Origin: Pseudocercospora fijiensis CIRAD86
Taxonomy: Eukaryota > Ascomycota > Dothideomycetes > Mycosphaerellales > Mycosphaerellaceae
DNA length: 64,000 nt
Direction: 5' to 3'
Assembly: GCF_000340215.1 (NCBI RefSeq)
Contig: NW_006921533.1
Coordinates: forward strand, 8,256,641-8,320,640
Both the position numbers and the translations under genes were made by a program. Each line of letters starts with the position of its first letter. Within the stretch, counting starts at the first letter, position 1. The notes beneath the pieces were generated by a model that saw only the letters and a list, made by a program, of their open reading frames with translations, was not told the origin of the DNA and did no database searches. Below are positions 28,687 through 58,827 of the stretch, piece by piece.

Positions 28687-28995
28687 TATAAGAACCTAAG
28701 TAAGTAAAGTCTCCTATTGTGCCTTAGTAAGCCTACGTAACAATTATGTGATATTATTACGTATACTGCGGTGCTGTCTCGCTAGCGTAAAGCCTACTTA
28801 GTATATATGTGGAAAAGCTCGGTCGCTTATACGGATATACTCGGTTACTAGCTCGGTATATATGCTATCCGTACGTAGCCTAGTTAATAGTAAACACTCT
28901 GCCCTATTCTAAGAAAGGTACGGTTTAGTTCTACTTCCTACTACGGCGATTAGTAGAGGGTGTTCTATGCGTTGCTATATGCCTATTTCCTTATA
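28687..28995 (+). repeat. E3 5' LTR
   Basis: 309 bp, from TATAAGAACCTAAG to TTCCTTATA, which is TG...CA after RIP. Identical in length to 35369-35677, with differences of the CpA/TpA kind. Confidence 0.9.
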
Positions 28996-29041
28996 GTTCT
29001 AAACCGTCTACCCTTCGTAGCGGCCTATAGAACCCCGAAAG

Positions 29042-34002: not shown

Positions 34003-34131
34003 TTAAAACAAAAGAAAATGAAACTTAAAAAAATAGTAGATACGTGCTCGTTTCGCTACTAAAAAAGGCCTATCGGCCTAGTATATATAAAGGTAGCGCC
34101 GCGTAGGCGCGGCAACGGCGGGCCGCCTACT

Positions 34132-34930
34132 CTACTTATTCTTAGACTCCTCCTCTTCGTCCTCCTCTTTAATACCTATAGCGGCATCGATAGTAGCGAC
34201 GGCGTTAGCGCCGACGCGCTAAGCGAGGTTCTAGTACAGTTAGTATACGAAGCGTAGATAAGACGAGGCTATAGGAAAAAACTATACCTAACGACCGATC
34301 TCTACTAAGCCGGCTAAGTTAGTACCGATATTCTCGAGGGCACTAAGCAAGTTAATATCCGTAAGGGACCCGCTAGCGGCCCCCTTACGGGCTAGAGCTT
34401 TGCCGCCTAGGGTTACCTTATTCTTGTTAATATAGAAGGCGTCGAGCGTAGATAGGATAACTAATAAGAAGGTTAGTATACGAAGCGCAAGCGGAGCGTA
34501 TAAGAAACCTACATATAACGACGGCGTCTAGGTTAGCCTAGAGTGCCTCTAAGGCCTCGTTAGACTCCTCGACGGAGTCGTAGCTATCTAGATCGTAAAG
34601 GTCGCGCGTAGCGCATACGGCGCGGATATAGGCTAGTAGCGACACTAGCGCGCGTACCGTAATAGGAGTGTAGGTATAATAGCTGCTATAGCAGCGATTA
34701 TAGTTACGCTTAGTAGTAGGGTCTATATTACCGCCTACGTAGAGCTTAGACAGGTTATCTAAGGCGAGTTAGTTGCGAAGCGCGTATATATAGCAAGGGT
34801 CGAGAAAACGTACTATTAGCCGTTATATACCTAAAGTAACGAGTATAGCCCTCTAGGACTTTTAGTAGGCGCTAGGTAGGCGTAGTAGGTATCGAGGGCG
34901 GAGCGCCTACGGCGCGCTTGCCTAAGGTAC
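34132..34930 (-). pseudogene. E3 antisense accessory gene with two introns, unknown product
   Basis: On the minus strand a frame enters near 34930 and is followed through three exons: about 34930-34513, 34460-34288 and 34230-34132, with TAG stop at 34134-34132. Two introns are proposed: 34512-34461 (GTAGGT...CTAAC...TAG, 52 bp) and 34287-34231 (GTATAG...CTAAC...TAG, 57 bp). Removing them joins clean coding sequence in phase. The product would be about 260 residues: a helical N-terminal half, a KVTLGGKALARKGAASGSL stretch in the middle exon, and a very acidic tail. Breaks are TAG/TAA of RIP type. I recognise no family. The start is unknown, and another upstream exon is possible. It runs toward pol, tail to tail. 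Confidence 0.55.
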
Positions 34931-35368
34931 GCGAAGGAGTAGCTATACTAGTAATGTTTTTTTTAATAGATATTTAAGAAAGAAAAATCTTTAAGTAATA
35001 CTAGGAGGGCGCAAGGGAGGAATAGGTAGAGGGTAGGCGGGTAGTATTTAGAGCGCTTAGAAAAAGAAGAAGTTTTCAAGCGGGCTTCGAATACTTTAAA
35101 TACTCGCCTCGCTTTCGGATAGCTTGCGTTCTCGCGTAGCTACCGCGTTCTTAGAAATTTAGGCAACCTCTAGTTAGTGCTAGAAGTAGCCGCGCTTTAA
35201 ATCTATAAACAAACAAGCAACTACGAGGCAAATTATAACGTGCCTAGCAACTATAGCCTAGCGATAGGTACGTATAAGACGCGCAAGTATAGCGCAGAGT
35301 ATAAGAAATAGTATAATTTACTATATTGCCCTATAGCTAGGATAGCTATATTAGGGGAAGGAGATAAT
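34931..35368. other. E3 region before the 3' LTR
   Basis: A T8 run at about 34957 (which would be an A-run upstream of the antisense gene) is followed by purine-rich stretches (GGAGGGCGCAAGGGAGG at about 35005) and GGGGAAGGAGATAATTA just before the LTR at 35369, a likely polypurine tract. No frame was recognised. Confidence 0.5.
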
Positions 35369-35677
35369 TATAAGAACCTAAGCAAGTAAAGTCTCCTATT
35401 ATGCCTTAGCAAGCCTATATAACAATTATATAATGTTATTACATATACTACGGTGCTATCTCGCTAGCGTAAAGCCTGCTTAGCGTATACGCGGAAAAGC
35501 TCGGTCGCTCGTACGGATATACTCGGTTACTAGCTCGGTATATATACTATCTGTGCGTAGCCTAGTTAATAGTAAATACTCTGCCCTGTTCTAAGAAAGG
35601 CACGGTTTAGTTCTACTTCCTACTACAGCGATTAGTAGAGGGTGTTCTATACGTTGCTATATACCTATTTCCTTATA
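35369..35677 (+). repeat. E3 3' LTR
   Basis: 309-bp copy of 28687-28995, followed by the duplication GGTAC at 35678-35682. Confidence 0.9.
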
Positions 35678-35682
35678 GGTAC

Positions 35683-38616: not shown

Positions 38617-38895
38617 TATTAGCTAGTAACCGGCCCTACACCTATAGGCTAGTTTTAAGCCTATATAAGAGGCCTCCTTCTACATTGTAGATAGATTATT
38701 AACCTCGTATAGTATATTGTTTATGTTACACTTCTATAATGCCTATATTGCAGGGCTCTAGTTATTAGCCTAAGCGATAGTCTCGTTATCCTATCTTGCT
38801 AAATATAGCTACCTATATTGCTATAGGTTATGTTATCCTCGGTAGCCTATACTATTGCTATAAGTAGTAGTAGTAGTATTAGTTTCCGTCCTTTA
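38617..38895 (+). repeat. E4 5' LTR
   Basis: 279 bp from TATTAGCTAGTAACC to TCCGTCCTTTA, the RIP form of TG...CA. It contains a GTA microsatellite near its end; one GTA fewer than the 3' LTR accounts for the 3-bp length difference. It is followed by TTAGAGCCGAAGG, before RIP TTGGAGCC, a possible primer-binding site. Confidence 0.85.
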
Positions 38896-39713
38896 TTAGA
38901 GCCGAAGGTAGGGCTATCTCTTTATATCTAACAGGTTCGGGTATGTTGAAGGTAGTCTCTAGGTACGAATAGCTATAACCGAAGCGAGGGTACGATAAGA
39001 GCCTACGATACGGACGATACTAAAGTATCTTAAGGGGCCGTTACGACAAGTAGAGAAACCTCTTAACGAGGGCATCGCTTTAACCCCGAAAAGCTACAAA
39101 CCCTTAGGACTGTTACAGCTTAGGGCCTAGTCTATAACTATAGCTAGCTTCTAAGGACTCGGCTCCGGGTCGAAGACCTATTTAGCACCGCTTGCTCGAA
39201 ATAAGCTACCGCCCGCCTAAGGAGGAGATAGATTAATTACCTATCGGCCTTGCTTAGTTTACTAAGACTATCTATATAATAGCAATTTCTAGATTATAGG
39301 ACGGATGCCTAGGCAGTTCCCCTATTAACTAGGTAGACTGTTTCGGGATTCGCTGCCTCGTTCGGACAGTGTTTAGCCTTCTACTAGAAAAAGAAGGTCC
39401 CCGCCTCCCCGCCTAGCTAAAAGAGATAACGATAGTTAGTAAAGTAGCTAGTTTCTAGGATCTAGGTATAAATAGAGATTGCAGTTCCTTCCTCCGAGCG
39501 GCTTTTGTCTAAATTTACTAAATTAAAGCTTCTAGGGGTGTCTAGGCGACCCCTAGGAGGCTAAACTCTAATGCTACCCTAGAGGTAATATTAGAAGAAA
39601 ACAGCCTAGTACACTATTTTCTCGCATAGCAATATCGAAATAAACCAAACCTACAATATATACTAAAAACACTTTCCTATAGTATTTTATTTTAACTACT
39701 TTATAATAATCGA
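38896..39713. other. E4 leader with palindrome copy 1
   Basis: Untranslated leader. It holds no clear frame. The first copy of the E4 palindrome is at 39569-39593, arms TAATGCTACCCT and GAGGTAATATTA around one base, 120 bp before the first frame. Confidence 0.6.
39569..39593. repeat. E4 palindrome, copy 1
   Basis: 25 bp, inverted repeat of 12-bp arms around one base, before the Gag-protease frame. It is the most diverged of the five copies. Confidence 0.8.
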
Positions 39714-42563
39714 ATAAGCTCTAGCGAAAGCGAGTATTACGAATTAGCGGAATCTTCGGAATCTAATAACCTACCGGACCCTATTAACGAAGAAATTAGG
39801 CGACGACTAGTTGTTATAAGCGCTATCGAACTAGGGGCTATCGAGCCTTCTACGCCCGAGGCCCTCTACAATGTCGTTATAAAGATGATTTAAGGGCAAA
39901 CTAACCTTCTCCGTTAGAATAGGCGTCGCCCGCTAGAGCTAGGAAGTAGTAGGAACCCTTTGTTCGAAGGGTAGAACGCTACGGCGCACGTAGAACGCTT
40001 TAAGGACAACTTAGCCGAGTACGGGCTCGAAGAGGAGTCGGACTAGTATAAGGTCCGGTCTCTTACGAGGACTACTATTACTAAGCTTTACCGAACCCTT
40101 AGAACCCTAGTTAGCTACCTAGAAAAGGACGATAAGTCTAATGCCGACTAGGAGGTCTTTAAGCAGGCCTTTATAAGGGAGTATCGGGATCGCGATAGCC
40201 GTCGCATTAAAGGCAGTCGTATATAGCTTAAGAACCTCTATATAGAGAGGCGTACCGAAGATAACGACCTAAAGGAGTACGTCCGCGAGTTTGTTAAGTT
40301 AGCGGACGGTATCGACTAGTAGGACCTCGAGAATTCTTAGAGAACGAGGCTGCTCCTTAAAGGGTTACTATAGTCTACGGCTAAGCGTATCTTCCGTCGC
40401 TATAAGCTTAGCGAAGCTAATCCTAAGACCTTTAGGAAGTACAAAGAGGTCCTAGAGGCTATTAAGGACGACATTAACAGCTCTGCCGATATAAAGAAGT
40501 TTATTTACGGCGAGGACCGGAATAACCTAGCCTAGGTAAGGAACGATACCTCGGGAACTAGAGGGCCTAAGTTTCTTCCTAAATCGCAAAGTAGTCCTAG
40601 TACCGTAACTCCTACCGTTACTAAGCATTCTTAGGACGTTGCGGACTTAGCTAAATCCCTAGCCTAGCTTAACCTTAATGCGAAAGCACTATAGCGAGTT
40701 AGGGAGGTCCTTAATATTAGTATACTAAAGGATGTGCTACTAGTCTACTAGGTCTCCGATCCTAACTATCCTAAGGCCCCTTTAGTTAACGTCTACGCTA
40801 TACGGAAGATCTATTCTAACTTAGATAGTAAGTGCTAGATATGCGGCGGTTTTAAATATGTTTAATCAAACTACCCTATCTAGAAGGAGCTTCTTAAGAG
40901 GAAGCTCGTTATATAAGTAAATAGTCGGTTCTACTATACTAATACCGGCGACAAGATTGACTTCGAGTAGGATCGTAGAGCTCCGAAGCTGCCTCAACTT
41001 AGGAGTCTTCTAGAGAAGAAGTATAGTAGCAAGATCGAGTTTAAGGATACTAGGAATAGTACCCTCGCTGCTATTACTAAACGAGAAACTTAGAAGGTTA
41101 GGGCAAAACAGGTTAAGGAGCGGAGTAGTAATAGTACTACTAAGCCTATTAAAGTCAACTTTGTGTCTTAGGACCCGGACGTAGTTACTAATGTTTACGC
41201 GGTTACTAAGAATAGTATAGATGTCTACGCTGCTACAAGGTCCTAAACTTAGTCGTCCTAAACCTAGTCGTCCTAGGGCAAGGGCAAGAGCCTATAGAAC
41301 CCTACCCGCCCTAGTACGGCAGCCCCTACTAGGATACTTAAGAAGCAGGCAGCTAATAAGGCTAAGAAACAGCGAGAATTAGTCGCTAAGACTAAAACAC
41401 TCTAGACAGCTAAAGACCGTACAACCCGAGCTAGTATAGCTACTCCGGAGGTACTAGAGACTCCCGATATCGATATAGAGGATGCTACTACCGACCTTAG
41501 TAGTACCCTAGGCCTAGCTAACCCGCCGGCCTATAAACGAAAGTTAGCCGACCTAAAGAGCTTTCGCTTTAATAGGTATATAAAGAAGTATAGTGCCGGG
41601 CCTACTAACTCTTACGATATAAAGGTAAATGCTCTCTTCTAGGCTTTATAGTTCCTAGACCTTAAGTCTAACGTGTCTATAGGGGAGCTTCTAGTATACG
41701 GTTTGCCTACTAACCTGTTCTAGAGCCGGATTCCTAACGATATAACCTTTATAAAAGACCTTGCAGCCCTTCGACGTAAATAGGGGCGAGAGGACTATAT
41801 CGACGTCTCTTCCCTATAGTTCCTTCCTAAATTTTTAGGGGCCTAGGAGTTAGCAGAAGGCGAATTAGTGACCTACGAGAGCTAGGAGACTATCGATAAT
41901 GCTAACGAAGAGGGGATTAAGGAGATAGGCCGAGGGGATAATAATAATACCGACCCTGCTTCGGTTTTAGTTTCTATTAAGGCTGTCCGATTTACTAGCT
42001 AACAAATCGGTCGAGTAGGACCTCCTCGACCTAAGGAACTTTACTCTATCCCTAATAATATAGACCTTTCCGTAGTTACCCGTTCCTTTACCGTCGTTCC
42101 CGCTATCTATATTTAAGTTACTATCGGAAGCTATAGTTAGTAGTTGCTAGCAATGCTTAATAATAGTTTAGAGTTACTTATTATAAGTAAGCGCTAGGCT
42201 AAACAGCTCCGACTGCTAATAAATAGAGATATTTCCCTTAGTATATAGGGAGTAAATAGGGAGGTTACGCTAGTAGGTGCCTACTATAATGTTATAGTAG
42301 ACGCTTTCGGTATATGCTTTTCCTTTACCTTCTAGATTGCCGCTAACCCGAATACGCTAATTATTCTAGGTCGTCTATAGTCTCGCATAACCCGGGGTAT
42401 CTAGCGCAACTACGACGATAGCTCCTAGGAAGGAACTATCGCTAACTAGAAGGGTAACCGAGTCGTGTTTACTAGTTATATCGGAAACACTAGCTGCAAG
42501 TCCTACGAGGATATCCTTACTACTTCTAAGCGCTCTTCGGGAAACGCTATAGCGCGGTTGTAA
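39714..42563 (+). pseudogene. E4 frame 1: Gag with retropepsin
   Basis: Starts at ATA (former ATG) 39714, followed by a serine/glutamate-rich start, and runs in one phase to TAA at 42561-42563 or a stop shortly after. The Gag capsid part covers about 40000-40600 (helical, basic and acidic residues alternating). A single zinc knuckle is at 40833-40874: Cys, two residues, Cys, four residues, then TAT where His (CAT) is expected, four residues, then TAC where Cys (TGC) is expected. A lysine-rich linker follows. Protease is at the end of the frame: a damaged D-D/S-S active site at about 42156 and IILGRL, the ILGRP flap-distal motif, at about 42361-42378. It would supply capsid and the maturation protease. 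Confidence 0.75.
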
Positions 42564-42812
42564 GACCGGCAATCTACGCTATAAGTTAGTATAGCTTAAA
42601 TAGGTTATATCTAGAGGTGCGCCGCTCCGTACGTTAAGGCAAGTTTCTAGGCTCTATACTAAGGAGGCGAATGCTCGAAGCGATAGCGAGTATAACAACC
42701 CGGCAACGACAACCTAGTACACGAATCTCGGTAATAATGCTATCGTAGGCATCGCCGCCGGAAGCGGATCTACCCGAGCCCGAATCCGAACTAACTAATT
42801 AGAGCGCCGATC

Positions 42813-42837
42813 TAATGCTACCCCGGGGGTATTATTA
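42813..42837. repeat. E4 palindrome, copy 2 (between frames 1 and 2)
   Basis: Arms TAATGCTACCCC and GGGGTATTATTA around G; identical to copy 5 at 50491-50515. It sits in the gap between the Gag-protease and RT-integrase frames. Confidence 0.9.
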
Positions 42838-42841
42838 GGAA

Positions 42842-45800
42842 TCTAACGTTTTCGCCGGAATTATAAATTAGGATTACTAGCTATATACCTACCGACTTAA
42901 GAAGACTTCCGATAAAGTTTACGCGCTATTCTATTGCGCCAATCTCCGGGCCTAACGTTAAAGAGAGAGGGCTCGGGTATTACGAGCGGTTAGTGTATAT
43001 ACCCTATATAAGAGGGTAGCTAACAAGATTAAGCCCGTAAAAGGCAGCGTATATATAACCGATAGGTCTAATCCTAGCGGAAATCCTAACTAGCGACAAA
43101 AGTGCCTTAACCGCGAAGCGATATTAATACCTAGGGATAGTCTATACGACTAGAGGTATATTACTAAAAAGTTCTCCGCTATTCCTAGGGGATCGAGGCT
43201 AACGCCGGAGAGACTAGCGAATATTAAACCTAGCATCGAGCTTTCGGATCTTAAACTAGATTTGCTATACGAGCTTCTATATAACCGCGAAGCCGTATTA
43301 GTATATAACTTTACGTATCTAGGTAGGATTAACCCGGAGGTTGCCCCTTTATAGAGGATCCGAACGATCGAGTATAAGCCTTAGGCTTACCTAGGGTTTA
43401 AGCTAAACCTAAGCCTAAGAGGTATAGTTAAGGACATAATACGGCAGCGTATAAAGGCTAGTACCTTAGAGCCTTCCTATGCCTCGTATCGCAACCTATA
43501 CTTCCTAGTTTAGAAGAAGACAGCTCCTAGGGAACTAAAGAAGTACCGTCTAATTAACGCTATATAGAAGTTTAACGTAGTTACGATTAGAGATGCTAAC
43601 CTCCCTCCGGAGACTAATAGGTTCTCGGAAGCTTTTACTAACTATATTGTAGCCTTACTAGTTAATGTTTTCTCGGGCTACGACTAGATCCCTCTCTATC
43701 CTAATAGCCGCGACCTTACTAGTTTCGAGACACCTCTTAGGCTATATAGACAAACTACCCTTCCCTAAGGGGCAACTAACTCCGTAGCCTAGTTCGTTCG
43801 TATTATAAACTAAGTCCTCGCGGCCTATATCTCCTATATAGCGATGCCTTTCCTTAACGACATCGGTATTAAGGGCCCTAAAACTAGGTACGATAATAAA
43901 GAAGTAGAGCCTAGCATCCGTAGGTTCTTTCTCGAACACATTTAGAACCTCGATAGTGTCCTCTACGACCTAGAGCGAGCTAACCTAACGGTATATAGGG
44001 AGAAGCTTTAGCTCCTATACAAACGAATAAATATTGTCGGGTTTGTAACTAATAAGAACGGCCGCTATCCTAACAATGTACGGGTCCTAAAGATTGTGTC
44101 CTAGCTAGACCCTACCTATTAGAAAGATGTCCGGATCTAGCTTAGAGTAGTCTCCTACTTCCGCATCTAGGTCGAAAACTTTGCGTTAGTATACAAGCCT
44201 CTATACGCCTTACTTAAGAAGGATATAGAGTTTAAATAGACCTCCGTTTACTAAGCCGCTAAGGACAAGGTTACTAAGGCACTTATTAGCGCGCCTACGC
44301 TTACCTCTATTAACTACTCGGAAGGCGTAGGTCTACTAATTATTACTATCGACTCGAGCGGGGAAGGCTACGGCGAGATACTAATATAGTGTAATCGTAA
44401 GGAGCCCTCCTTACGTTACCCTATCCGGTACGAGTCCGGTCTATAGAAACCTATCGAGGCCCGATACGATGCTAGCAAGCGAGAGTGCCTTAGTGTCTAT
44501 AAGGCTCTTAAGAAGTTCCGACCTTGGCTTTTTAGAGTGTTCTTTCGCCTAGAAGTCGACGCTTAGACGCTAGTCTATTAACTTAACCGTATAGCCTCCG
44601 ACCTGCCTAACTCTGCGATAGCTCGGTAGGTTGCCTAGATCTATTTGTTTAATTTCGACGTCTTCTATATTCCTAGTAAGAAGCACACTAGACCGGATAG
44701 CCTTTCTAGAAGGCCTACTATAGAAGAAGACATCGCTAAGATAATAGAAGAAGAGGATGTCGACGCGGTTATTAACCGTACCTTCTTTACTGCCTTCTAT
44801 ATTAACGCTATGCTAGTAATTACTAGGTCTACTACCGACGACTAACCTAGTAACTAGCCTAACGAAGACCCTACTACTAATAGCGAGGACTAGGACGATA
44901 CTAAGGCGGGCGAACTAGATAGGGATAATATCCTTAATAGGGTCTACTCCGACGACTCCTATAATATCGCCTACTTCCTTACCTATACGAAGAGAGCTCC
45001 CGGTCTGTTAAAGAGTTAATACCGCCGTATTATTCGCTATTCTCGGAGGTTCCTTATTAAGGATCGCATCCTTTAGCGACAGGCTATAGTTAATGCACCG
45101 CTCTAGCGTATTATTAACGATCTAGTAGCCCGATAGGAAATCCTTCGTTCCGTTTACGATAAGCTCGGCTACCGGGCGGCGGAGGGCACCTTCGATGTCC
45201 TTCGTCGTTGCTACTAGTAGGACGGCGTATAGGCTAATGTCTCTCGCTACTATAAGAGCTGTCCTAAGTGCAACTTTAGGAACAGCTACCGACGTCTAGG
45301 AGAACTACGTATCCCTACTGCCTAGTTAGTTAGGGAGCGGTAGTATAGCGATAGGGTCTATCTTAGCCGCAACAATAGCCTATATATTATTCGAGAGGGT
45401 CTTTCTCGATAGCCGGAGGCCTATTATTTCTATAAAGGTTGCGGTGCTATTAATGCCCGTAATATAGCTACCTTCCTGTTTAAGGATCTGTTTTGCCGCT
45501 AGGGAACACCTTACGAGGTTATCTTAGATAACGCTACGAACAATATAGCTAAGGAGGTTTAAGCGCTACTTGTTTCGTACGGGGCTAAGAACGTTCGCAT
45601 CTCCCTATACTATCCCTAGTCGAATACTATTATTAAGCGCGGCTATCGGTCGTTAATTGATGCCCTGTCTAAGATAACTAATAGTAGCGACAGATTAGTT
45701 CCTATTTCTACCCGCGTCCTAGCCCTTCTCTAGGCGGACCGAACTACTATTGTCGATACGACTAGACTTATACTAGCGGAACTTATAATTAGGAGGGACG

Positions 45801-46552
45801 CCGTTCTTCCTATTAAATTATCCTACCGCACGTACGGCGTTTACGATTAGGGGTCTATTCGTACTAGGGCAGACCTTCTTACCTTGCGGGCTAAGGCTCT
45901 TAAGGATATAACTACGACTTCTTAAGAGGGTCTTGCTCGACAACGTCGGCTTCGGAAAGAGGCGAAGCAGTATTTTAATAACTACAATGCTATTAATTAG
46001 GAACCTTTAAAGGTTAGCGATATAGTCCTTCTATACCGGTCCGAACTAGAGTATAGTTACTCCTATAAGCTAGCCTTTAAGTAGAAGGGTCCTTATAGAG
46101 TAAAGGAGGTCCTTTACTCGGGTTCCGTATACCTTCTTTAGGAGCTAGATAGTGCTACCTTAAAGCACTCTTACCCTCGGGCCAATCTGAAGAAGATCGT
46201 TAAGTTACGCGAACCTGCCTACCCTCCGCCGACCGAGGAGGAAGTTAGTGCCTCTATAGACCCTCTACCGTCCTTAGATACCTATCGGGAGGAGGATCCT
46301 ACCGCTATTATAGATCCTATTCTACCTAAGAACTATACCTATCCCTAGGTTCGTCTTAGTAAGCTATTAAGAATAACTTAAGAATAGAGGGAGGGTTATA
46401 TACGGATTAACTATATATAGAGCGTTTCCGATATTAATTCCGATTCTAATAGTAAACTAGACTTTTAGCTATCTAACTCTAACTCCGAGGAACCTAACTA
46501 GTCTAGCGACGAAGACCGCTTAGAATTATAGCTAGATCCCGAGACTAAATAA
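42842..46552 (+). pseudogene. E4 frame 2: RT, RNase H, integrase
   Basis: About 1,237 codons in one phase, ending TAA at 46550-46552. The RT opening matches the fungal Gypsy pattern RLTPERL, then YLGRINPEVAPL, then KYRLINA and VTIRDANLPPETN (about 43580-43620). The active-site box at 43850-43870 reads FLNDIGIKG, where LDD is expected. RNase H follows with ITIDSSGEGYGEIL (about 44343-44385) and ends in FYIPSKKHTRPDSLSRRP (44660-44715). Integrase is at about 45000-46150, with an EVILDNATNN block (about 45510) and KRGYRSLIDALSK (about 45637). It would copy and integrate the element. The start is not fixed and lies soon after palindrome copy 2. Confidence 0.8.
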
Positions 46553-46819
46553 TTGCTTACTCTTCCGTGCCTCTACCTACCTCTACTACGTTGCTTCCTT
46601 ACTCTTGTCGATCGTTCTCCGCGCTATTAATATAGTACCGCCCTGTACCTTTAGTCCTTACCTATTATCTGTTCCTACTAATATTTATACTCTCGTTTGT
46701 TACTTTTAGTTTATCCTATTATTGTCTTTTGCTTTTGCCTTTACCTTCGATTAATGTTGCTATAACTTTATTCCTTCGCTCTTGTTTCCTTAGATAGAAC
46801 TATACGAGGCGTGTTTTCC

Positions 46820-46844
46820 TAATAATATCCCGGGGGTAGTATTA
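46820..46844. repeat. E4 palindrome, copy 3
   Basis: Arms TAATAATATCCC and GGGGTAGTATTA around G, about 270 bp after the integrase frame. Its right arm keeps GTAG, which suggests the original right arm was GGGGTAGCATTA and the palindrome was perfect. Confidence 0.85.
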
Positions 46845-47251
46845 GGAAGATAGCCGAACCTAACCCCTCTATCCTTCTAGGACTACTTCCCTCTAGATTC
46901 CTAGACTCTAGCAACCGCCCTTAGGTAGTAACGACAATAAGATACTCCGCTAGAGAAGATTGTTCCTACCCTAATTAGTATTAGTTACGTAGGACACTAA
47001 GAAAGGGAGGATCCCTCTCCCTTCCTAGCTCTTAGATAGACGTAGCAACCTAGGCCTATAGCCTCTAAGAATAGGGACCTTAGGCCGCTAAGCTTAGTAT
47101 CTAGAAGAAAGAAGAACGCACGGGCTACGTTTATATACCTGCTGCTATAAAAGGTAATGCTACATCTACAACGATAGTACTATAGGCTAATACAAGCTAC
47201 GCTAGGCCTAGGCGATTTGCTCCTAGTTGCCGAGCATCTCTAGAGAAAAGC

Positions 47252-47276
47252 TAATACTATCCTAGGGGTATTATTA
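47252..47276. repeat. E4 palindrome, copy 4
   Basis: Arms TAATACTATCCT and GGGGTATTATTA around A, 422 bp before the frame-3 ATG. Confidence 0.85.
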
Positions 47277-47697
47277 GTCCCGCTAGCCTTACTACTATAG
47301 ATTGCTACTAGGTACTCGAACTAACTAGTTACATTTCGAGTACGCGGGAATCTACGAAAGCTAGAGGTTAACGAAGGCGCGTAGTCGCTACTAGCAATTA
47401 GCTAGATCGATTGTTAAACTTTAGCTGCCCTACTAATAAAGGAGTCTCGTATATAGCTTTACTTTTTAGGGTCTATATATAATCGTTATCCGTTTGCTTT
47501 ACCGGAATATACGGACTACGCTACCTTCGCACCCTATTTAAGGCGAGCCTTCTAAGCTCTTTCTTCTACTCGAGTACTAACTAACTTACTACCGCCTACC
47601 CCCCCCCTCTTCTATCTAAACCCTTTAATTATTATTAACAAGCTACGAACGTTTTTATAAGCTCGTTACTAACTCCTTTCTACTCCGGTCGACTAAG

Positions 47698-50433
47698 ATG
47701 TCTTCCGGCGCCCTAAATCCGCTAGGTGCTAGCAGTAGTAGCAACCTACGAGCCCTAAACCTAGGCGTACTAGTCCCGATCGAAGCCCCCTCCGATAGCG
47801 CCTTAGCTGCTATAACTAGTCTCGAGCATTACTTCTAGATCGTTACCGCTCTTAAAGACCCTTAAGAGAAGATCTAGAACGCTCGTACCCTGCTACGCGT
47901 TATTAATAGGAACATTAAGAAGGCTACTATCTTAGTTGCGTACGGTATAAACAACTTGCGTTAGTCTATCGGTAAGCGTATCTTTAAGCGCGAGGTTCTT
48001 AACGATATAGATATCGAACAAGCCTTTCCTATCGTCTATAGCCTCGAGACGGCCGGCACCTAGATTCGCTTGCGCTTTAAGACCCTCGACTAGGCCTTCG
48101 AATATTAGGGAGGACTAAGCAGTCTTCCTAAGAGCCTTATTAACTTCGCCTACGGTAGACAAGAGCGTACTAAGCAGGTCTCTTCGTTCGTTAATAAGTA
48201 CAAGGTCCGTCGTTAAGGCGCTAAGTACCTTTCCCGTACTATAATCTATCGTATATCTACCGCTAGCAAGAAGGTAGGCAAGTAGTTACTTAACTTGTCC
48301 TTTACGCTTAACGACTTTACGACATCCTACTAGAAGCGGTACTACGATATAATTGTCTAGATCGATCTTAATATATAGACAACTAAGGATCTACTAAAAG
48401 AGAAGGGCTATCGCATTAATAGTACAGGTTTTATTATTAAAGGTTAAGAGGCTCCTATCGTTAATGTCCTTAAACGTAAGGCTCTTCGCCTAGAGATAGA
48501 GGCCGATACGGCTACTAGTCTCGCGCTCGCTACGGAGATATAGGCTTAAGACCGTCGCTCGACCTGCAACTATAAGGTCCCTTAGGAAGTTAAGGACGAG
48601 CGCGCTAAGGCCGAAGCAGCGCGCAAGAAGGTATTGCATACTCGCTAGGCCCTCCGCAAGGCTACTAAGAAGTATAGCGCCCCTTCTAGGACTAACTATA
48701 GTACTAACTATAGTAACTCGGATGTTAATATACTAGATATACTACTAGAAGATGTCTCCTCCGAAGGCTCCTTTAGCGAGCGTAGAGATAGAGGGCTCTC
48801 GCCGATCCTATTAACTAAGAACATCTATAGTTCTTATAAAAGCGACTCTATTACGCACCTTATTACTAAGATCGATATAGTTCCTAAAGCCGATATAGGT
48901 AAAGCTCCTACTGCCCTATCTATCTATTAATAGCTCGACGACCTTAGCAAGCTAGGAGAAGAGCCGTTCTCTATATATGCTAACTATGTTAAGAAGGCCG
49001 CTAAGGTCTATAGTCTCTATGCTAGTGCTAAGGCGATTATCCTCGTCGGTCGCCTATTAAAGATTAGTCGCGAGGTTCCTAATTAAGACGCCTTCGCTAC
49101 CCTTAAGGCTAATTAGGCCTATACTAACTAGTTTCCTAGACGCCCTATTACCGCCCCGACATCTCTAGGACTCTACGCGTTTAACCCTACTAGTACTATT
49201 ACTCGCGCCCTTACGCTAACAGATCGCTAGAGTAAGTTCGTTACCGGCATTCTTAGCTAAGGTACCTCCTTCGATCGCTTTCGCTAGACTAGTAATGCCG
49301 TCTTCCCTTAAGTCTTTAGTTAGTTATAAGAGCCTTATAGAGTACATCTTCCTTTCCTTATCGACCTAATATAGGAAGAGTTTAAGATATACCTTTAGTA
49401 TATACGTAATATACCTAAGTCTAAGTAGGAAGGCCGCAATGCCCTTTAAACTTATAGTATAAGCAACTAAATCGTCCGCTAGCACCCTGCCCTATAGCTC
49501 CTAGCTATCGCCCTTCGACCTAATTACGTATACGAGCTTATCTCCGTCCCTAAGCCTACTAAGTTCTTTAAGGTTAGCGGTACTTACGAGAACTGTCCTT
49601 CTAAGGAGTCTACTCGTCTCGGACAAGATATAGTTAAGCTCGTAGCTAGCGAGGGTGCTAGTTACCTGCGTATTAAGGTCTGCCTTATGTCTAAGGATAA
49701 GACTAGCTACTCTACTATTGTCGAAGGTATACATTAGCCCGAGGTCTTTACGAACTAGGTTAAGAAGCTTAAGGCTCGTAGCCTAGTCCCGCTAAGCAAG
49801 ATCGGCAAGCTTACTAATAAGTACCTTACCGACGACGACCTCGACTATATGTTCGATAGTTAGCCTAATAGTAAGGGGCGTAAGGTAGAGTAGATCCTTA
49901 ACCCTCTAAAGGAGTACGAAGTCTCTATTTAGATGCTATACCTACTATATAGTAATCTAAAGACTAAGAGCAACCGTATATTAATTAACCTAGGCTACTC
50001 TCGCGTTATCGACGGCACTAAGATTAAGGGTTATAACAACTTAACCGTCGCTAAGGTTGCTAAGGCGTACCGTAATCTAACTGCCCTTCTAGGTTCGAAT
50101 ACCTTCGTACCGTTTCCCTTCCCTGCCGCTATCTTAGTCGAAGGCCTTAGTTGCATCTCCGACGCCCTAGTTAGTAGGATTCCTTAGTTAAGTTACGTTG
50201 TTTAGAACGAAGTTAAACAGATCCTCTAGCTTAATAACGAGGGACTTAAGGAATATCTATACGATTAGGAGAATGCTACGAAGGAAAAGGCTACTAACCT
50301 CTTCGTTAATTAAGCTTTCTACGAGGGACAGTACTTCGGTGCTAATAGCTTTAACGCATACGGAGGAGATTTCGAGAACCGACTAGTAGATAAGGTTATT
50401 GCTAGTAAGGATTACGGCGCGTTAAAGCAATAG
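47698..50433 (+). pseudogene. E4 frame 3: unknown 911-codon protein
   Basis: ATG at 47698 opens a frame followed to TAG at 50431-50433 in a phase different from both gag and pol. Every interruption I saw is TAG or TAA; no frameshift is needed over 2.7 kb, so it was under selection until RIP. The protein starts with a serine/asparagine-rich segment, has a lysine/arginine/alanine-rich charged helix at about 48530-48680, a serine-rich acidic linker at about 48720-48800, and a long C-terminal half with normal globular composition. I see no zinc finger, protease motif or clear membrane segment, so an envelope role is not supported. Function is unknown. It is flanked by palindromes at 47252 and 50491. 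Confidence 0.6.
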
Positions 50434-50490
50434 TAGGTCTATATAGTGTTGCTTAGGAAGTTGTTTTTATATAATTATAGTATCTAGGAT

Positions 50491-50515
50491 TAATGCTACC
50501 CCGGGGGTATTATTA
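50491..50515. repeat. E4 palindrome, copy 5 (after frame 3)
   Basis: Identical 25 bp to copy 2, 57 bp downstream of the frame-3 stop and 106 bp before the 3' LTR. Confidence 0.9.
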
Positions 50516-50621
50516 CGGAGTTCTAAAAATAGCCTTAGCTAAGAACGCTAAGGATACATATATGTTTGTTTTAAGCGCGTAATGTAAAGCGTGTCTAGTT
50601 AGATACGAAGAAAGGGAGGGA

Positions 50622-50903
50622 TATTAGCTAGTAACCGGCCCTACACCTATAGGCTAGTTTTGAGCCTATATAAGAGGCCTCCTTCTGCATTATAGATAGA
50701 TTATTAACCTCGTATAGCACATTGTTTATGTCACACTTCTATAATGCCTATATTGCAGGGCTCTAGTTATTAGCCTAAGCGACAGTCTCGTTATCCTATC
50801 TTGCTAAATATAGCTACCTATATTGCTATAGGTTATATTACCCTCGGTAGCCTATACTATTGCTATAAGTAGTAGTAGTAGTAGTATTAGTTTCCGTCCT
50901 TTA
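50622..50903 (+). repeat. E4 3' LTR
   Basis: 282-bp copy of 38617-38895. It is preceded by GAAGAAAGGGAGGGA (50607-50621), a clear polypurine tract, and followed by the duplication TTAG. Confidence 0.85.
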
Positions 50904-50907
50904 TTAG

Positions 50908-53210
50908 GTACAAGTTATTATATACCTTAGCAAAGCCCTTACAGACGTAGAAAAGCGGTACCTAGCTACCGAGCTTAAGGTTAGCGGACTAGTCTAGACA
51001 GCTCGCAAAGTACGAATAATCCTATAAGCGGTACGTAAGCTAGTATATGTTTTTTCCGACTATATAGCGGCCCTAGGCATTACTACGGCAGCGAGTCTCG
51101 CGACGACTATATCTACGGACAAGCTTAATCTCCGCCTAGTGCGAGCTAGTTAGTACCTCTCTTAGTACCCTAAGCTTAAGGTACACTACCGCCTAGGACG
51201 CCTCTACGGAATACCGAACGCCTTAAGTAGGCTCGTAGCGGACCTCGACCGAGCGGCAGATTAGATATACGATATACTAGATCCCCTAGTATATAACAAT
51301 CCGGCGCCTACGAATAATATAATCGACGCGTACTATATATGCCTATACGAAAGCGAGGGTACGATTTGCTTTTACGCTACTATAATCGACGAGTACTCCG
51401 GCCGAACGTATACCTCTAACGAGCCTATAGTTTTCTACTCCGTACTCGTAGAACTCGCTACCGAATTTAAGGACGACTTAAAAGCAGGATATACTAAGGA
51501 CCTGTATTAGTCCGCAATCCTAGCTTAGCTAAACGCCGTAGAAGAACGCCGCCTACGAGCCGCCGCTAAGAGGACCTTAGACGCTAACGACAGCCCTAAT
51601 TATAAGGAAGCTAACATTATAGGCGAGGCCGAGTCGAGCCTATTAGGACTTTGTTTTTTCTTACGCGACGACCTTATCTATTTTAAGGACGATACCGACG
51701 GCAGAGAGAGGCTATATATCCCCCGCTCCCTATATAAGGAGGTCTTCTAAATAGCCTACGATTATTACTACTACGCAGGTTATTACCGCACTTACGCTCG
51801 TCTATACGCTAGCTTTTATATATACCGGCTCGGACGCGAGGTCTCTAAGTATATCGCTTATTGCTCCGAGTATATCCTAAACTAGACGCTACGCTATCCT
51901 CTATACGGTAAATTGCAACCGATTAAATGCTAGCCTATTCTATAGTACGCTATTACTATAAACTAGGTTTACGGCCTGCTACCTAATAAAGACGGCTACG
52001 ATAGTTTCCTTACTAAGACGTATAAGTACTCTAAGCGCGTTATACTACGTAAGTATAAATTAACGTAGACGGCGTAGTAGCACGGCAGCGATTAGATCTA
52101 AGGACATATCGAAATAGAGCGCAACCTTCCGGCTATTATAATCGGCGACCGGGACCCTATTTAGCTTAGTAACTTTATAAAAGCAGCCTTTAAGAAGTTA
52201 GGTACGAGGTTCTTTATAACGACGGCGTACTACCCTTAGTCGGACGGCTAGTCTAAGCGAACTAATTAGACCGTAGAAATCGCACTACGATTCTTTACCT
52301 CTAATTATCTAGACGCTAATTAGACGGACGCACTTCCGTATATCTAGGCCGAGCTTAATAACGCTAGAAACGCCTCGACGGGAGAGGTACCTAATATTCT
52401 GATTTAAGGATTTAAGACTAACTTAGACGCGCTAAACCCCCTTACCGAGCTCCCTACTAAGGACTACTTAGTATTAAGATAGGAGGTACGCGATTAGGCC
52501 GCGGACTCTCTCGCGTAGGTAATAGCAATAATAAAAGACCGATACGACCGCAAGTATCGCCCTATTTCCTTTAAGACGGGCTAGAAGGTACTACTTAAGC
52601 TATATAAGAGATACCGCCTACTAGGGAACCCTAACCGAAAGCTCTCCGCGTAGCGTACTAGTCCTTTTAAGGTAGTACGCCTAGTCGGCAACCTCGCGTA
52701 CGAACTCGATCTCCTCCTAGTAATGCGTATCTACCCTATAATCTCAGTTTCGTAGCTAGAACCTTACCCCGAGGGCCGTAATCTATACGATAGAGAGATA
52801 CCTAAGCCTAGGCTAGTAGATAAAGCACCTTTCGACGACGACTACCTATACCTAAAGGCGCCCTATTACGAGATCGAGAAGCTCCTCGGACGTAGAGTCT
52901 CTAGGGGCAAGACGTAATATCTAGTTAAGTAGCGTAGCTACGGTTACGCGTATAACGTTTAGTACGACGTTAACGACCTCCGCGACTTAGCGGAACTTGT
53001 TTAGGAATACGATCGCCTCTACCTATAACAAGCGTTACGATAGCAAGCGTTACGTTAGTAGGCGGCACGTTAGCAAGCGCTATAATAGCAGATACCGATA
53101 GCGCCGTCCCTAAGCGCGCCGTAGTCGATAGTAGAAGAACTATAGGCTCGGCCTTCTCGGAGGCCTAGCTTGCGTAACTCCTAAAGAACGGCTATATAGA
53201 AGGTTAACTA
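50908..53210 (+). pseudogene. A2 gag-pol, part 3 (RNase H end, integrase, chromodomain)
   Basis: Resumes the frame cut at 38616. RNase H tail: ALTDVEKRYLATELKVSGLV near 50933-50995 and a TDKLNLRLVRAS.YLS block at about 51115. Integrase at about 51700-52450 includes a zinc-binding region damaged to Tyr at Cys/His sites and FFITTAYYP.SDG at about 52213. The C-terminal segment reads LEPYPEGRNLYDREIP (about 52758-52805). The chromodomain is at 52912-53020: YLVK.RSYGYAYNV.YDVNDLRDLAELV. A repetitive QALR-type tail follows to about 53100 and the frame ends near 53170-53210. It closely matches the A1 version. Confidence 0.8.
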
Positions 53211-53545
53211 AGTAGCACTATACGCAATAATAGGCATCTCTATCGCGGCATACTACGTTATAGCATTATTGTCTATAATTAAATCGCACCCTACTTTACC
53301 TTATTTTAAATCGCACCTTACTTTACTTTATTTTTAAAACGCAAATAGTTTACTTTATTGTCTTTCCCCTATTATTACTCTAATCCGACGGGCCGTACTA
53401 TATATATAAACGGCGTAGCGTAGGTAAGGTAAAGTTTACGTTATAATAAAGCGGAACGCCCTAGCAATACCCTAAAAATTTTTAGCTACTACGTATATAT
53501 CAAACTTAATATACTAACCTCCCTCTACTCTAGCGAACCTACGAC
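53211..53545. other. A2 pol-ORF2 spacer with paired repeat
   Basis: It holds a tandem pair at 53281-53307 and 53308-53335, each about AAATCGCACCCTACTTTACC plus TTATTTT. The equivalent pair in A1 is at 11567-11645. The candidate TATA box follows at 53399-53411. There is no coding sequence. Confidence 0.6.
53399..53411 (+). promoter_or_regulatory. Candidate internal TATA box of A2 before ORF2
   Basis: TATATATATAAAC preceded by GGGCCGTAC, about 140 bp before the point where the second frame can be followed. It is conserved in A1 at 11461-11473 (minus strand), which supports a separate promoter for the second frame. Confidence 0.5.
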
Positions 53546-56500
53546 TACGTACGCCCTCTAGTAATATACCGCTACCCCGTCGGCAACCCTATTATATCGA
53601 GCAACGCTAGTACGCCTAGCGACATTACCGCGATAGTACGCTACTGCCCTTAGAATAACACCTATAGCCCGCCGCCTATCGCCTTATATATATACCGCTA
53701 GGACGAACTGTCTAACTCTAGCTAGACCTAGCTAAAGGAACGCTACTATAAGTCCCTACTATTCTTCGCCTCTTAAGAGCCTAAATTCGAGCTATATAAC
53801 GACTACGCTACTACGCCGATAGAAGTAGCGTAGAGACTTAATTACGGTATCCTAGTAGAGTAGGTGCTAGCACTAGTATACCGCGAACTAGACTAGCCGC
53901 TACGCGACTACGTCGGCGAGTTTATAAGCGCTAAGATCTAGACGCGAATCTATAATACGCCGATCCTACGAGTTCTTCTTCGCGGACGCGCTACTAAGAT
54001 CTATCTAATTACGATCGCGGATTTTTTCCTATATAAGTACGGCTCCTATCGCGCCTTTATTACGCGTATCCGCGCGTAGGACTATATAGAAGCTACGGAC
54101 TTCGCCTTATCTCTACTCGACCCGGAGCCTAGCGTAATAGACTATAACTTATTACGACGTATTAAGATTACACTCTAGGAAAATGCGAGCCTTCGTAGGT
54201 ACGATAAGGACGACTGCTCCGAGTAGGCCTGTTTCTTTAGCGTACTAGAATTCTACTAGTTTCTCGATTAGGCGCCCGATATATTCGACGCTAGCGACGA
54301 AGGCGCGGTTGTTACGCTCTCTAACCCCTAGTATACGAAGCTTTTCTACGACCTAGATAACATCTCTATACGCGTACGGAACTACGACATCTATTACGCT
54401 ATCCGAACGCTATTACGACTTAATATCGGCATAACTAATTATAAGGAGATAGGAGCGCTATATAGCAGAAACTACGTCTAGGCGGCAGCGCTACTATTCC
54501 GCGTACTAGTAAAGTACGGTTTCTATTCTAACGCAATTAGCACTCTATACGAGGTACTTAAAGATATGCCTAGATAGGATAACACTAATATTAACCTTGT
54601 CGTAGTCTGCGACTAGATCGCTTAGGTCGCGGGCCGCGACGATATAGAGTAGTACCTAAATCGCGACGACCTACCGGGTTAGTATCCCTTAAACTAGATA
54701 CTTACGGCCGAGCGGATACGTAACTAGCAAACGGCGGCGATGCACGTAAAGGCATAAGAAAAGATTCTAGCCGCAGAGCTAGTAGACCCTATTACTAGCG
54801 AAATAACCGCGCTACTATAATACTTTATATAGATCGCGTTAATAGCAGACTTTTAAACTAAATACCGGTACTAGCCCGAGCGTACGCTTACAATCGTCTA
54901 CGACTAAGATACTATTATATAGAAGCGTAAGACGATTAGAGAGTAGAAGGATTATTATAATACGCTATATAGCTACTAGGGCGACGAAGGCTTAAATCTA
55001 AATAAGAAGGCCCTACGATATAAGTAGGGCGCCGAGCTAAGCGAGACTATAGCAAATAACAAGCAAGACGCGCTAGGTATAAACACAGCGCAAGATAAGC
55101 AAGATACTATCGAGCTATAGCCTATAACGTCTAGCGCGACGATCCTAATAAAAGATACTAAGAAGTAGGACGTTATAGCGAATACCGAAGCTAATCTACT
55201 ACTACCTAAGGGCCGTTACCTTAAGGACTCCCTATAGAAGTACTAGCCGACGCTAATCTAGGTAGTGCTCGCGAATGTTTTCCTATAAAAGATAACGCTC
55301 GATACTATTTATAAGGACGTCTAGACCCTCCTTAGATATACGATAATAGCGCGTTCCGTCGATAAGGAGCTCGGTAGGTAGGTAGAAGACGAGAACAGTA
55401 TAGTAATTATAGTAGACGGCGAATAGGTACTTACCTTATATAGCTAAGTAATATATAAAAAGGCGGTAGGCAAGCTTCCGGAGGCGGATACTAAGCTATT
55501 ACGAGATCGCCTATACTAGCTAAAGACTATTAACAAGCGACAACCGCAAAAGGCTACCGAGTAGCTACGACTACTAAAGGACGCTAGCAACGCAGAGGAC
55601 GCCGCTACTAATAAGTCGCCGAAGGATATACCTAAAGATACCGACTATAAGGAGGAGACAGGTCTAGTCGCTATATTATCGACTATAGTAGGAAGTAAGG
55701 CTCTAGAATAGGATACCGAGATATAGGACCCTATAGAGGTATAAGAACGCAATAAAGAGCTCTAGGAGGTAGTAATAGAGGCAATTTTAGCCTACGTAAT
55801 AGAGCCTATAACGGTAGTATAGCTAACCGAGGCTGTCTCTATCGCGTTCCTAAATATAAAAACTATACTAGACGCTAAGTTCGCGTAGGAGTTACTAGAA
55901 GCTAACGTTAGTATAAGCCTTAGCGAAGTAGGCGACGCGTTTATTCTAACCTTAAAAAGTAGGTTAGGGGCGAAGATTCGCGTAATAGAAACTACCTACT
56001 TTAATAACGAGTGCAATCTAGGTTAGTACGTCGTAGCGAACGACTCTAAGGCAGAAACGCTTATATAAACGTACGACGAGGAGACCGAGTATAACGATGC
56101 CCTAGCCTCTATCGACTATAACTCCCTAGTACGCGAGAACTCTAACGGTAGCGACGACTCTCTAGTACGCGACGACGCTTATAACGATAGCGACTCTCTA
56201 GTACGCTAAAACGCTAATAATAGCGACGACTTATAGTACGGCGATTAGAACGACGGTAAGCGACCGTAATATCCGATCCTAGACAGCGTCGATATAAATA
56301 GAGATATTTAAGACGCTATAAAGGCATTAGGCGCTCGCTAGCGTACCGCCGCCCTCTTCTATATAACGACGGTAAACGCCGTTAAGGTCGCTATAAAGGA
56401 GGATAATAATATTATCGAGCGTATTATAATAATAGACAAGTTAGCCTATATAGGACAAATTACGCTCTAACTAGTATACGAATACTAATTCCTTAGCTCG

Positions 56501-58567
56501 GTATATAAGACTGCTTATATAAACGAGTACTTTAAAGAATTTATTAGCGACTTTTACCCTACTCTAGTACCTAGTACAGACCTACGTAGTAGGCTCTAAG
56601 CTATATTCGACCGCGTCTAGGGATACTATAGAGGCCCGCTAGTCTTAGGACCGACCCTATTACTCTATATACTACTATAGACGCATACGGTAGTAGAGCA
56701 CGACGCTAACCCCCTAGCCGCCGACTATAAAAACGAGATATCGGACGAGCCTACCGATTACGCCGAGCCTACTAATAGCGCCGATCCTACTACCTACGAT
56801 AAGCCTACTAACGATACCGAGGACAATTAGGACTCTATATAAGCCGATACTAAGGACGCTAACGTTTAGGACCTTATATAAGCCGAGGACTATACCGATA
56901 ACGCTAGCGATATATCTACTATCGACGACGCGATAGATACGCCTAAGGGATAAGAGAAGGACGACGATAAGAAGGACGCCCTAATAGACGTAAAGGAGGA
57001 GAAGCAGCGCCGTAGAGCGGCTAGAGTAGCTAAGATAAATAAGAGTAAGATAGACAAGGACGACGATTAGGAAGACAGCCTAGCTATTATAGATAAGAAG
57101 AAGGTACGCTATAGAGCGGTTAATATAGATAAGAACAAGAACTTCTAGTACTCTAGTATATAGTATACTAGTATAGAAGACTAGTTAGAGTCGTAGTATT
57201 AAGCTAATATAGCAGTACTAATATATAATATGCTAGGATTTAGGACAATAGATTATATACTACTAATAGGTACCCGCTTATCCGACTTTAAATTAGGAAT
57301 AATATACCGTAAGGTCGACGACACTACTATCGGCTTAAAGGATCTCGGAAAGTAGTATACGTACTCTGTCGAGGCATAGGGATATCTACGCTCTAAGCGT
57401 AAGCTAATCGGCCCGCTATACCTATACTATAAGCAGTATCCTAACAGAACATATAAGATTGCCGCTATTACCTATTATACTATACTTATAGGTAGCGGCA
57501 CCTTCCGCTATAAGGCCCTAGATTAAGTTACTTAGACGTATATCGATAATATAAGTAACTAGGCGATAATTACGACTATAATACCGCTAGACATCGAGGG
57601 CGAAACCGAGCTAGTTACCTCTTTACGCTAATAGCAGGCGCGCTAGCGGAAGTACTATAAGGACCTAAACTACGACCTATATAAGAAGTAGCTCTAAATT
57701 ATTTCCCTGTCCTACCTTACCTTTAAGGCTGCTATAGTAGAGTAGCTAAAGGAGATTAATATTAAGGCAATCCTAGACTACGCCCTTACGAATATATAGG
57801 TCTATAATACGACTAACGAAGATAGTATACTAACGGATGTCGCGCTCGACTATTTCCTACGTATAGTATATCTCTAGCTATAATTAGGCCGTATACTAAG
57901 CGTAGACCGCGATTAGGTTGCTACCTATAATAAGAAGGGCCTACTACTAAAAGATATTAAATACGATTACGCTACGGAGGACGTAGATCCGGTAAAGTTA
58001 TACTACGGACTAGGGTATATAAGTATTATAGGACGATACTAGTCGCTTACCGACGAGCAACGCGCCGATCTATATCTCTACCTACTAGACGAGCTCGCTA
58101 TAGCTATTAAGTCTAAGACGCTCGTTAGTACCGTAGCTGCTAACGAAGAAGCGCTAGCTACGCCGCAACTATCGGAGAAGCGTAAGACTAAGTCGCGGTA
58201 TAGCGCCGCCGACGCTAGTACCCTTGCCCTAGCCTCTAAGGGCAAAGGCAAAGCCTTCCCCCTACTAAAAGGCAAGGATAAGAATAGGACGCGCTAACCC
58301 TTCGATCGCGCCTTATCCCTACTAGCCTCGGCACCCGCCTCGATACCTATACCCGAAACGCTAAAGCAAGTCTAGTACGTCGGCGTACGTAAGACATAAG
58401 ACAAGAGTAGCAGAACAAAGCGCAAGCGAGCTAGTACTAGTACTAGCGAGATATCTAACTAAAAGAGACGACGCTAATACGTAAACTTTATAACTAGCTC
58501 CGACACTAAGGCTATACTAAAGTCGGCTACTAAGAAGACGCGCGCTAAACTAGTAGACTTAGACTAA
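53546..58567 (+). pseudogene. A2 second large frame (ORF2), about 1,670 codons, unknown protein
   Basis: One phase was followed codon by codon from about 53546 to TAA at 58565-58567 (the true stop may be a little later). All interruptions are TAG or TAA and no shift is needed over 5 kb. N-terminal third: globular composition rich in Tyr, Arg and Asp. Middle (about 56060-56260): repeated SLVR-type units with Asn/Ser/Asp. About 56700-57060: very acidic, Thr/Asp/Pro-rich, then a lysine/arginine-rich helix (KEEKQRRRAARVAK). C terminus (about 58180-58500): Ala/Lys/Arg-rich with GKGKAFP and KRKRA, resembling nuclear localisation signals. No catalytic motif was recognised. The A1 homologue (6610-11330) keeps the frame but is clearly more diverged than pol. 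Confidence 0.65.
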
Positions 58568-58700
58568 GGAGAGGAGGATATACTAAGAACATATAATACG
58601 AACGCATAATACGAATACGAGCGGTAAGAAAAACGAGTAAAAGCGGAAGGAGTATATAAGAAGGGGTTTAGCTAATATAGTACGCTAGCCTTCGTTCTAT

Positions 58701-58713
58701 CGGACGGGGGTGC
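58701..58713 (+). other. A2 polypurine tract
   Basis: CGGACGGGGGTGC lies directly before the 3' LTR, in the position of the plus-strand primer of LTR retroelements. Confidence 0.6.
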
Positions 58714-58827
58714 TATTACGGCAGGGACGGTACGCTAGCTAAGCCCGGTATATACTTTCCGTAGAACCGTAGATACTTACCCTAATACTATACTATAGCT
58801 AACCTACTAATCGTCCCTTATATAACA
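58714..58827 (+). repeat. A2 3' LTR
   Basis: 114-bp copy of 25798-25911, starting TATTACGGCAGGG (TG to TA by RIP) and ending CTTATATAACA, followed by GGCTT. Confidence 0.9.

What the first reader, a model, noticed from the sequence alone, without database searches (positions are those of the whole stretch)
53546..58567. Giant Gypsy chromovirus family with a second frame of about 1,670 codons after pol
A1 and A2 are two copies, in opposite orientation, of a retroelement of about 13.5 kb with LTRs of only 108-114 bp. Downstream of a complete gag-pol-chromodomain frame both have another frame of about 5 kb. In A2 I could follow it in one phase over its whole length with only TAG/TAA breaks. I know of no described chromovirus with such a frame and could not assign any domain; novelty is inference.
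Basis: partly seen in the sequence, partly recalled or inferred. Interest (0 to 1): 0.87.

Follow-up and report, generated by a model that had tools for sequence, protein, structure and literature searches.

The report
Swappable giant third gene in retrotransposon
A mutated fungal retrotransposon family carries, behind its usual genes, a very large extra gene of unknown function that comes in two very different versions, and these versions appear to have been swapped between otherwise similar copies.

Summary
The frame is real and belongs to the element. A2 (25798-58827, two nested insertions) and A1 (6419-19885, minus strand) are RIP-mutated chromovirus copies with a sense frame of about 1,600 codons between pol and the 3' LTR. 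The genome search scored 40 of 84 pol candidates; all 40 are followed by the frame. All 12 distinct indel types inside the frame of 17 further copies are multiples of three. The A1 and A2 proteins are 38% identical, 44% and 54% in two domains.

Unexpected: the frame has two deep types, A and B, while pol does not separate by type (median identity to A2 94% for both). Two clear recombinants (L046, L047) and a probable third (L030) switch type at different points just behind pol. Six B frames are followed by an A-type 3' end. The frame therefore moved as a cassette. No homologue or domain was found; fold prediction did not finish. Fungal Gypsy elements with an additional ORF of unknown function were reported in 2010 (PMC2864245). 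New variant of a known kind; the function is inference.

The parts
25798..58827 (+). A2: chromovirus copy with A-type frame, interrupted by nested elements at 28687-35668 and 38617-50886
   Evidence: repeats and self-comparison; TSD GGCTT 25793-25797 / 58828-58832
25798..25911 (+). A2 5' LTR, 114 bp
   Evidence: 98% identical to the 3' LTR over 105 bp
58714..58827 (+). A2 3' LTR, 114 bp
53702..58584 (+). A-type additional frame (ORF2) of A2: conserved N domain about 53702-54994, variable middle, conserved C domain about 57137-58141, basic C tail; start and end codons not determinable because of RIP
53117..53522 (+). 3' end of pol / intergenic stretch in which recombinant copies switch frame type (L047 near 53117, L046 near 53237, L030 before 53522)
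58590..58713 (+). 3' tail between ORF2 and LTR, shared at 95-98% (tail plus LTR) by A-type copies and six B-type copies
6419..19885 (-). A1: chromovirus copy with B-type frame
6419..6526 (-). A1 3' LTR, 108 bp
19778..19885 (-). A1 5' LTR, 108 bp
13585..16584 (-). A1 pol stretch with RVT_1 and RNase H; YIDD at 14646
12084..13583 (-). A1 integrase zinc-binding and Tf2-1-like SH3 domain
11925..12071 (-). A1 chromodomain (residues 5-53 of window:11385-12083:-)
6650..11197 (-). B-type additional frame (ORF2) of A1, about 1,516 codons as read
56121..56231 (+). 36-nt (12-codon) tandem units in the variable middle of the A-type frame; other copies differ here by 36 or 39 nt, in frame

Best explanation
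The stretch is the third gene of a large Ty3/Gypsy chromovirus of a filamentous fungus that uses RIP. When the family was active it encoded, in sense between pol and the 3' LTR, a protein of about 1,600 residues with two conserved domains, a fast-evolving acidic and repeat-bearing middle, and a basic C tail. Two ancient types of this gene (A and B) circulated in one element population and were exchanged as a cassette, most likely because reverse transcriptase switched templates between two co-packaged RNAs, in the conserved sequence just behind the chromodomain and again in the 3' tail/LTR. Shown here: the frame, its conservation, its presence behind every scored pol copy, two types, cassette exchange. 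Inferred: template switching as the route (DNA-level gene conversion would give the same pattern), and the protein's role. I think it most likely works as an intracellular accessory protein that binds nucleic acid or host factors (particle, nuclear entry, targeting or escape from silencing), and that conflict with host or sibling elements kept two versions in play.
For: Frame: 12 of 12 distinct indel types up to about 58,500 are multiples of three in 17 copies, whereas 5 of 6 in the intergenic stretch and 4 of 5 in the tail are not; fewer stops than the other sense phases; codon-position identity 0.51/0.61/0.37 and coinciding stops 40 against 5.2; sense phase scores best. Integral: 40 of 40 scored pol copies have it downstream, 25 A and 15 B. 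Exchange: L047 (B frame) sits inside the A2 clade on pol with support 1.000, and 0.999 without transition columns; its pol is 93-98% identical to A2 up to about 53,117 and then drops to 33-66% where both are present, while it is 83-95% identical to A1; L046 does the same from about 53,237 and returns to the A type in the tail and LTR (93% to A2, 73% to A1). Six B frames are followed by an A-type tail at 95-98%. Pol identity to A2 does not differ by type (medians 94 and 94, p = 0.32). Basic C tail in both types (+16 of 28 and +15 of 27 charged per 100 residues).
Against: Function is not shown: no homologue, domain or fold, and no intact copy was seen to read the protein from. The no-hit searches had no positive control for fungal proteins, and RIP garbles the queries. 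The pN/pS test within the A type is inconclusive: 0.61-0.76 over all variants in the right phase, but not significant for variants shared by two or more copies, and one wrong phase also gave a low value. One antisense phase has about as few stops in A1 (87 against 89) and scores second. The position of L046 on the pol tree is weakly resolved (0.221) and that of L045 conflicts between the two trees. L030 may keep an old intergenic stretch instead of being a recombinant.
Confidence: 0.6

Rival explanations
1. The frame is an env-like gene: a surface or membrane protein that lets the element leave or enter cells or hyphae, exchanged between elements as retroviral env genes are.
For: Right place (sense, between pol and 3' LTR), fast divergence and exchange as a 3' module, which resembles env behaviour (general knowledge; plant sense aORFs are discussed as env-like in PMC7264820, passages).
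Against: No hydrophobic stretch near the N terminus among the best six of either protein, and none of 1.6 or more (Kyte-Doolittle, 19 residues) at corresponding places in both. The length of about 1,600 residues and the basic tail are unusual for env. RIP alters hydropathy, so this is weak.
Confidence: 0.12
2. A captured host gene that serves as a silencing or RIP antagonist, or another host-directed function, specific to this lineage.
For: Size and two-domain layout, and two long-lived types, fit an arms race.
Against: The protein search of the same genome listed 30 and 38 places, and those I could compare lie in element copies; only 29 of 114 and 31 of 122 candidates were scored, so a diverged host homologue was not ruled out. 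The scored copies were all RIP-mutated, so any protection failed in the end.
Confidence: 0.2
3. A and B are separate old families that only look recombined because pol is conserved or converged by RIP.
For: RIP drives the same changes in all copies; the backbones of A1 and L048 do form their own group (0.986).
Against: L047 nests inside the A2 clade also after all transition columns are dropped (0.999). L046 changes identity abruptly on both sides of the frame. Six B frames have A-type tails.
Confidence: 0.05
4. The 5-kb stretch is a separate element nested in one copy, or a chance open frame in RIP-mutated DNA.
For: The window is full of nested elements; RIP biases stop codons and removes TGA.
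Against: Present behind 40 of 40 scored pol copies; no bounding inverted repeat; conserved as protein between types, with indels in threes.
Confidence: 0.02

Closest known systems
[quoted passage not shown] 2010, PMC2864245; section 5 and passages read)
   Same: Fungal chromodomain Gypsy elements; some carry an additional ORF; lengths reach more than 13 kb
   Different: I saw only the text and figure legend: position, length, orientation and sequence of those ORFs were not seen, so relatedness is untested; no exchange of the ORF is mentioned in the section read
Boty / BcGypsy1 of Botrytis cinerea with the additional gene brtn (Zhao et al. 2011, known here through PMC7264820 and PMC8365987 passages)
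   Same: Fungal LTR element with an extra gene between pol and 3' LTR
   Different: brtn is antisense; this frame scores as sense. The two sequences were not compared
Sense aORFs (aORF-3S) of plant LTR retrotransposons, e.g. Athila, Bagy2 (PMC7264820, passages)
   Same: Sense ORF between pol and 3' LTR kept in most copies
   Different: Those are described as env-like; here no membrane features were found, the frame is much longer than I recall for those, and it comes in two exchanged types
ORF3 modules of bdelloid rotifer LTR retrotransposons (PMC5408684, abstract and section 3.4 read)
   Same: Extra ORF behind pol, shared between retroelement types as a module
   Different: There unrelated ORF3 types of known fold (GDSL, DEDDy, env) are shared between different element classes; here two homologous but deeply diverged types are exchanged within one family, with no known fold

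Membership tests
Ty3/Gypsy chromovirus | pol order RT - RNase H - integrase | tested here: met
   RVT_1, RT_RNaseH, then Integrase_H2C2 and SH3_Tf2-1 in A1 in that order; YIDD motif
Ty3/Gypsy chromovirus | chromodomain at the end of integrase | tested here: met
   PF00385 at 6.6e-06, above its cut-off, behind SH3_Tf2-1
Ty3/Gypsy chromovirus | LTRs TG...CA with target duplication | tested here: met
   A2: TG...CA 5' LTR and GGCTT duplication; A1 flanks do not match
Ty3/Gypsy chromovirus | gag and protease | tested here: inconclusive
   No Pfam match in the pieces tried upstream of RT, read in one frame each with X at stops; RIP turns Cys and His codons into Tyr, so zinc knuckles would be lost
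Named fungal chromovirus clade (Tf1, Pyret, Maggy, Polly and others) | place on an RT/integrase tree | not tested
   no reference sequences at hand
[quoted passage not shown]
   40 of 40 scored pol copies, 84 candidates in all; sense phase best
Env-like genes | signal peptide and membrane segments | tested here: inconclusive
   none shared by both types, but RIP-altered sequence
brtn-type antisense gene | antisense orientation | tested here: not met
   sense phase 2143 against 1243 for the best antisense phase (the alignment was made in the sense frame, which favours it)
Additional ORF of PMC2864245 elements | sequence homology to that ORF | not testable with these tools

The most novel reading that the evidence does not exclude
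The frame is a new protein family acting as an exchangeable specificity module of fungal chromoviruses: two or more incompatible versions, kept apart for a long time and reshuffled by recombination, decide which element RNAs, hosts or target sites an element can use or which defence it escapes, much as env decides tropism in retroviruses, but without a membrane protein.
Probability: 0.2. Interest if true: 0.8.

Novelty: new variant of a known kind. Interest (0 to 1): 0.55.

Why it matters
Extra ORFs in LTR retrotransposons are known but mostly unexplained. Here one of the largest parts of the element is an extra gene that behaves genetically like a cassette: sharp exchange borders just behind pol and at the 3' tail, two deep types on one backbone, conserved ends and a variable middle. 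That gives a dated, copy-rich system to ask why retrotransposons keep third genes and how modules move between them. It also shows, for scans of RIP-mutated DNA, that absence of TGA in a frame means nothing, whereas indels in threes and stop codons that coincide between homologues do.

Tried and rejected
Rejected: separate nested element (no bounding repeats; frame behind 40 of 40 scored pol copies). Rejected: chance frame. Rejected as evidence: lack of TGA. Rejected as a lead: the single PDB profile hit 5h61 (E 0.0064, 68 residues), too weak and alone; best 0.43. Inconclusive: pN/pS within the A type. Related frame elsewhere in the window: none at E 0.01 in the six segments tried. No hit: protein database, viral contigs, Pfam, PHROGs. 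Host species: not identified.

Copies left out: for the indel and stop counts I used 17 of the 20 fetched A-type copies (L025, L037, L043 were interrupted or incomplete) plus A2. Of the B type I fetched 4 of the places listed. In the pol test I gave all 40 pol places, 33 of 37 A places and 21 of 37 B places.

Structure: the job for the C domain was accepted, was unfinished, and the tool was declared switched off; I did not call it again and have no model.

Full report
What is there. A1 (6419-19885, minus strand) and A2 (25798-58827, plus strand) are two copies of one LTR retroelement with very short LTRs of 108 and 114 bp. A2 is interrupted by two other LTR elements, at 28687-35668 and 38617-50886, and is framed by a 5-bp duplication, GGCTT; the flanks of A1 do not match. 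In A1, with X at stops, Pfam finds reverse transcriptase, RNase H, integrase zinc-binding, Tf2-1-like SH3 and a chromodomain in chromovirus order, and a YIDD motif. Gag and protease were not recognised. Both copies are saturated with RIP: (CA+TG)/(AC+GT) is 0.19 in A1 and 0.18 in the 3' part of A2 against 1.28 in the gene-bearing stretch 60000-64000.

The frame. Behind pol, A2 has a sense frame in phase 53000+3k. Better evidence: the frame has 95 stops against 158 and 156 in the other phases. Between A2 and 17 other A-type copies there are 12 distinct indel types up to about 58,500, all multiples of three. Beyond that point two copies (L034, L039) run out and show eight more indels, seven of them not multiples of three. 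As controls, 4 of 5 indels in pol, 1 of 6 in the intergenic stretch and 1 of 5 in the 3' tail are multiples of three; the intergenic ones that are not all come from one copy, L030, and the tail ones sit at one spot. The conserved N and C segments are multiples of three long in 17 of 17 A copies; in four B copies this holds for N in 4 and C in 2, the other two being broken in the C part.

A and B. The frame of A1 is homologous but deeply different: 38% amino-acid identity over 1,444 aligned codons, 44% in the N domain and 54% in the C domain, with nucleotide identity 0.51, 0.61 and 0.37 at codon positions 1, 2 and 3, and 40 coinciding stops against 5.2 expected. The sense phase scores 2143 against 1243 for the next best, an antisense phase; the alignment was made in the sense phase, and that antisense phase has about as few stops in A1, so strand rests mainly on position 2 being most conserved. 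Gag-pol of A1 and A2 is 85.5-87.7% identical, so the drop behind pol is abrupt. In the genome I found 30 places of the A type (29 of 114 candidates scored) and 38 of the B type including fragments (31 of 122 scored); only 2 TGA occur in the latter and none in the former.

Cassette exchange. The pol search scored 40 of 84 candidates; each of the 40 is followed on the same strand by a frame, 25 of type A and 15 of type B, one of the latter 9.3 kb away. Pol identity to A2 is the same for both (median 94, 24 A against 15 B, p = 0.32). L047 carries a B frame, but its pol lies inside the A2 clade (support 1.000; 0.999 without transition columns), is 93-98% identical to A2 in 250-column windows and changes to the A1 type near 53,117. 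L046 changes near 53,237 and changes back in the 3' tail and LTR, where it is 93% identical to A2 and 73% to A1. L030 has an A frame behind a B-like intergenic stretch and changes just before 53,522; it is either a third recombinant or keeps an older intergenic form. Six B frames are followed by an A-type tail at 95-98% (a lower bound). Weak points: the neighbour of L046 on the tree is unresolved (0.221), L045 is placed differently by the two trees, and RT template switching cannot be told from DNA-level gene conversion here.

What the protein might do. Two conserved domains, an acidic and repeat-bearing middle in the A type (12-codon units at 56121-56231), and a basic tail in both types. No shared hydrophobic segment of membrane strength. 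No Pfam match at E up to 10 for the whole frames or up to 1 for members of the two domain alignments, no PHROG, no relative among scored candidates of the protein database (8000, 3221 and 8000 candidates), none in viral contigs. These negatives are soft: RIP turns Cys and His codons into Tyr, Met into Ile and Gln/Trp into stops (codon logic; the frame has 3 Met, 4 Cys, 3 His in 1,633), and no control showed that the protein database holds fungi. The fold job did not return. My best guess, an intracellular accessory protein kept in two versions by conflict, is inference.

Literature. PMC2864245 (section 5 and passages) reports fungal Gypsy elements of about 4.4 to more than 13 kb and labels an additional ORF of unknown function in its figure of structures; which element has it, and where, I did not see. 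PMC7264820 (passages) reviews sense and antisense additional ORFs and names Boty/brtn; PMC8365987 (passages) mentions brtn in BcGypsy1. PMC5408684 (abstract and section 3.4) describes ORF3 modules shared between retroelements. PMC3562529 and PMC3248453 were seen in passages only. Six searches listed no paper that, by title and abstract, describes exchange of such a frame in fungi; the library lacks most subscription journals.

Noticed in passing
28687-35668: Nested LTR element with about 300-bp LTRs (91%), inserted in A2; distant protein similarity to A1 pol (26%, E 5e-26).
   Followed up: partly
38617-50886: Second nested element, 12.3 kb with about 265-bp LTRs (96%), no protein match to A1 at E 1e-4; content not identified.
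   Followed up: partly
1-474: Tandem repeat of 136-bp units.
   Followed up: no
9439-9612: 87-nt tandem duplication inside the B-type frame of A1: 29 codons, again a multiple of three.
   Followed up: no
60734-62635: Intact sugar/MFS transporter ORF next to the element, not RIP-mutated.
   Followed up: no
L048 (G000:C3:450758-458358): Copy with an older B-like frame (69% to the A1 protein) and pol 84% to A2; a possible third frame subtype, broken in its C part.
   Followed up: partly
G000:C9:1364429-1365104: Fragment with 68% DNA identity to the B frame, perhaps a more distant frame type; could not be fetched.
   Followed up: no
19886-25799: Stretch between A1 and A2 with GC up to 0.57 and much weaker RIP signal (0.88).
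   Followed up: no
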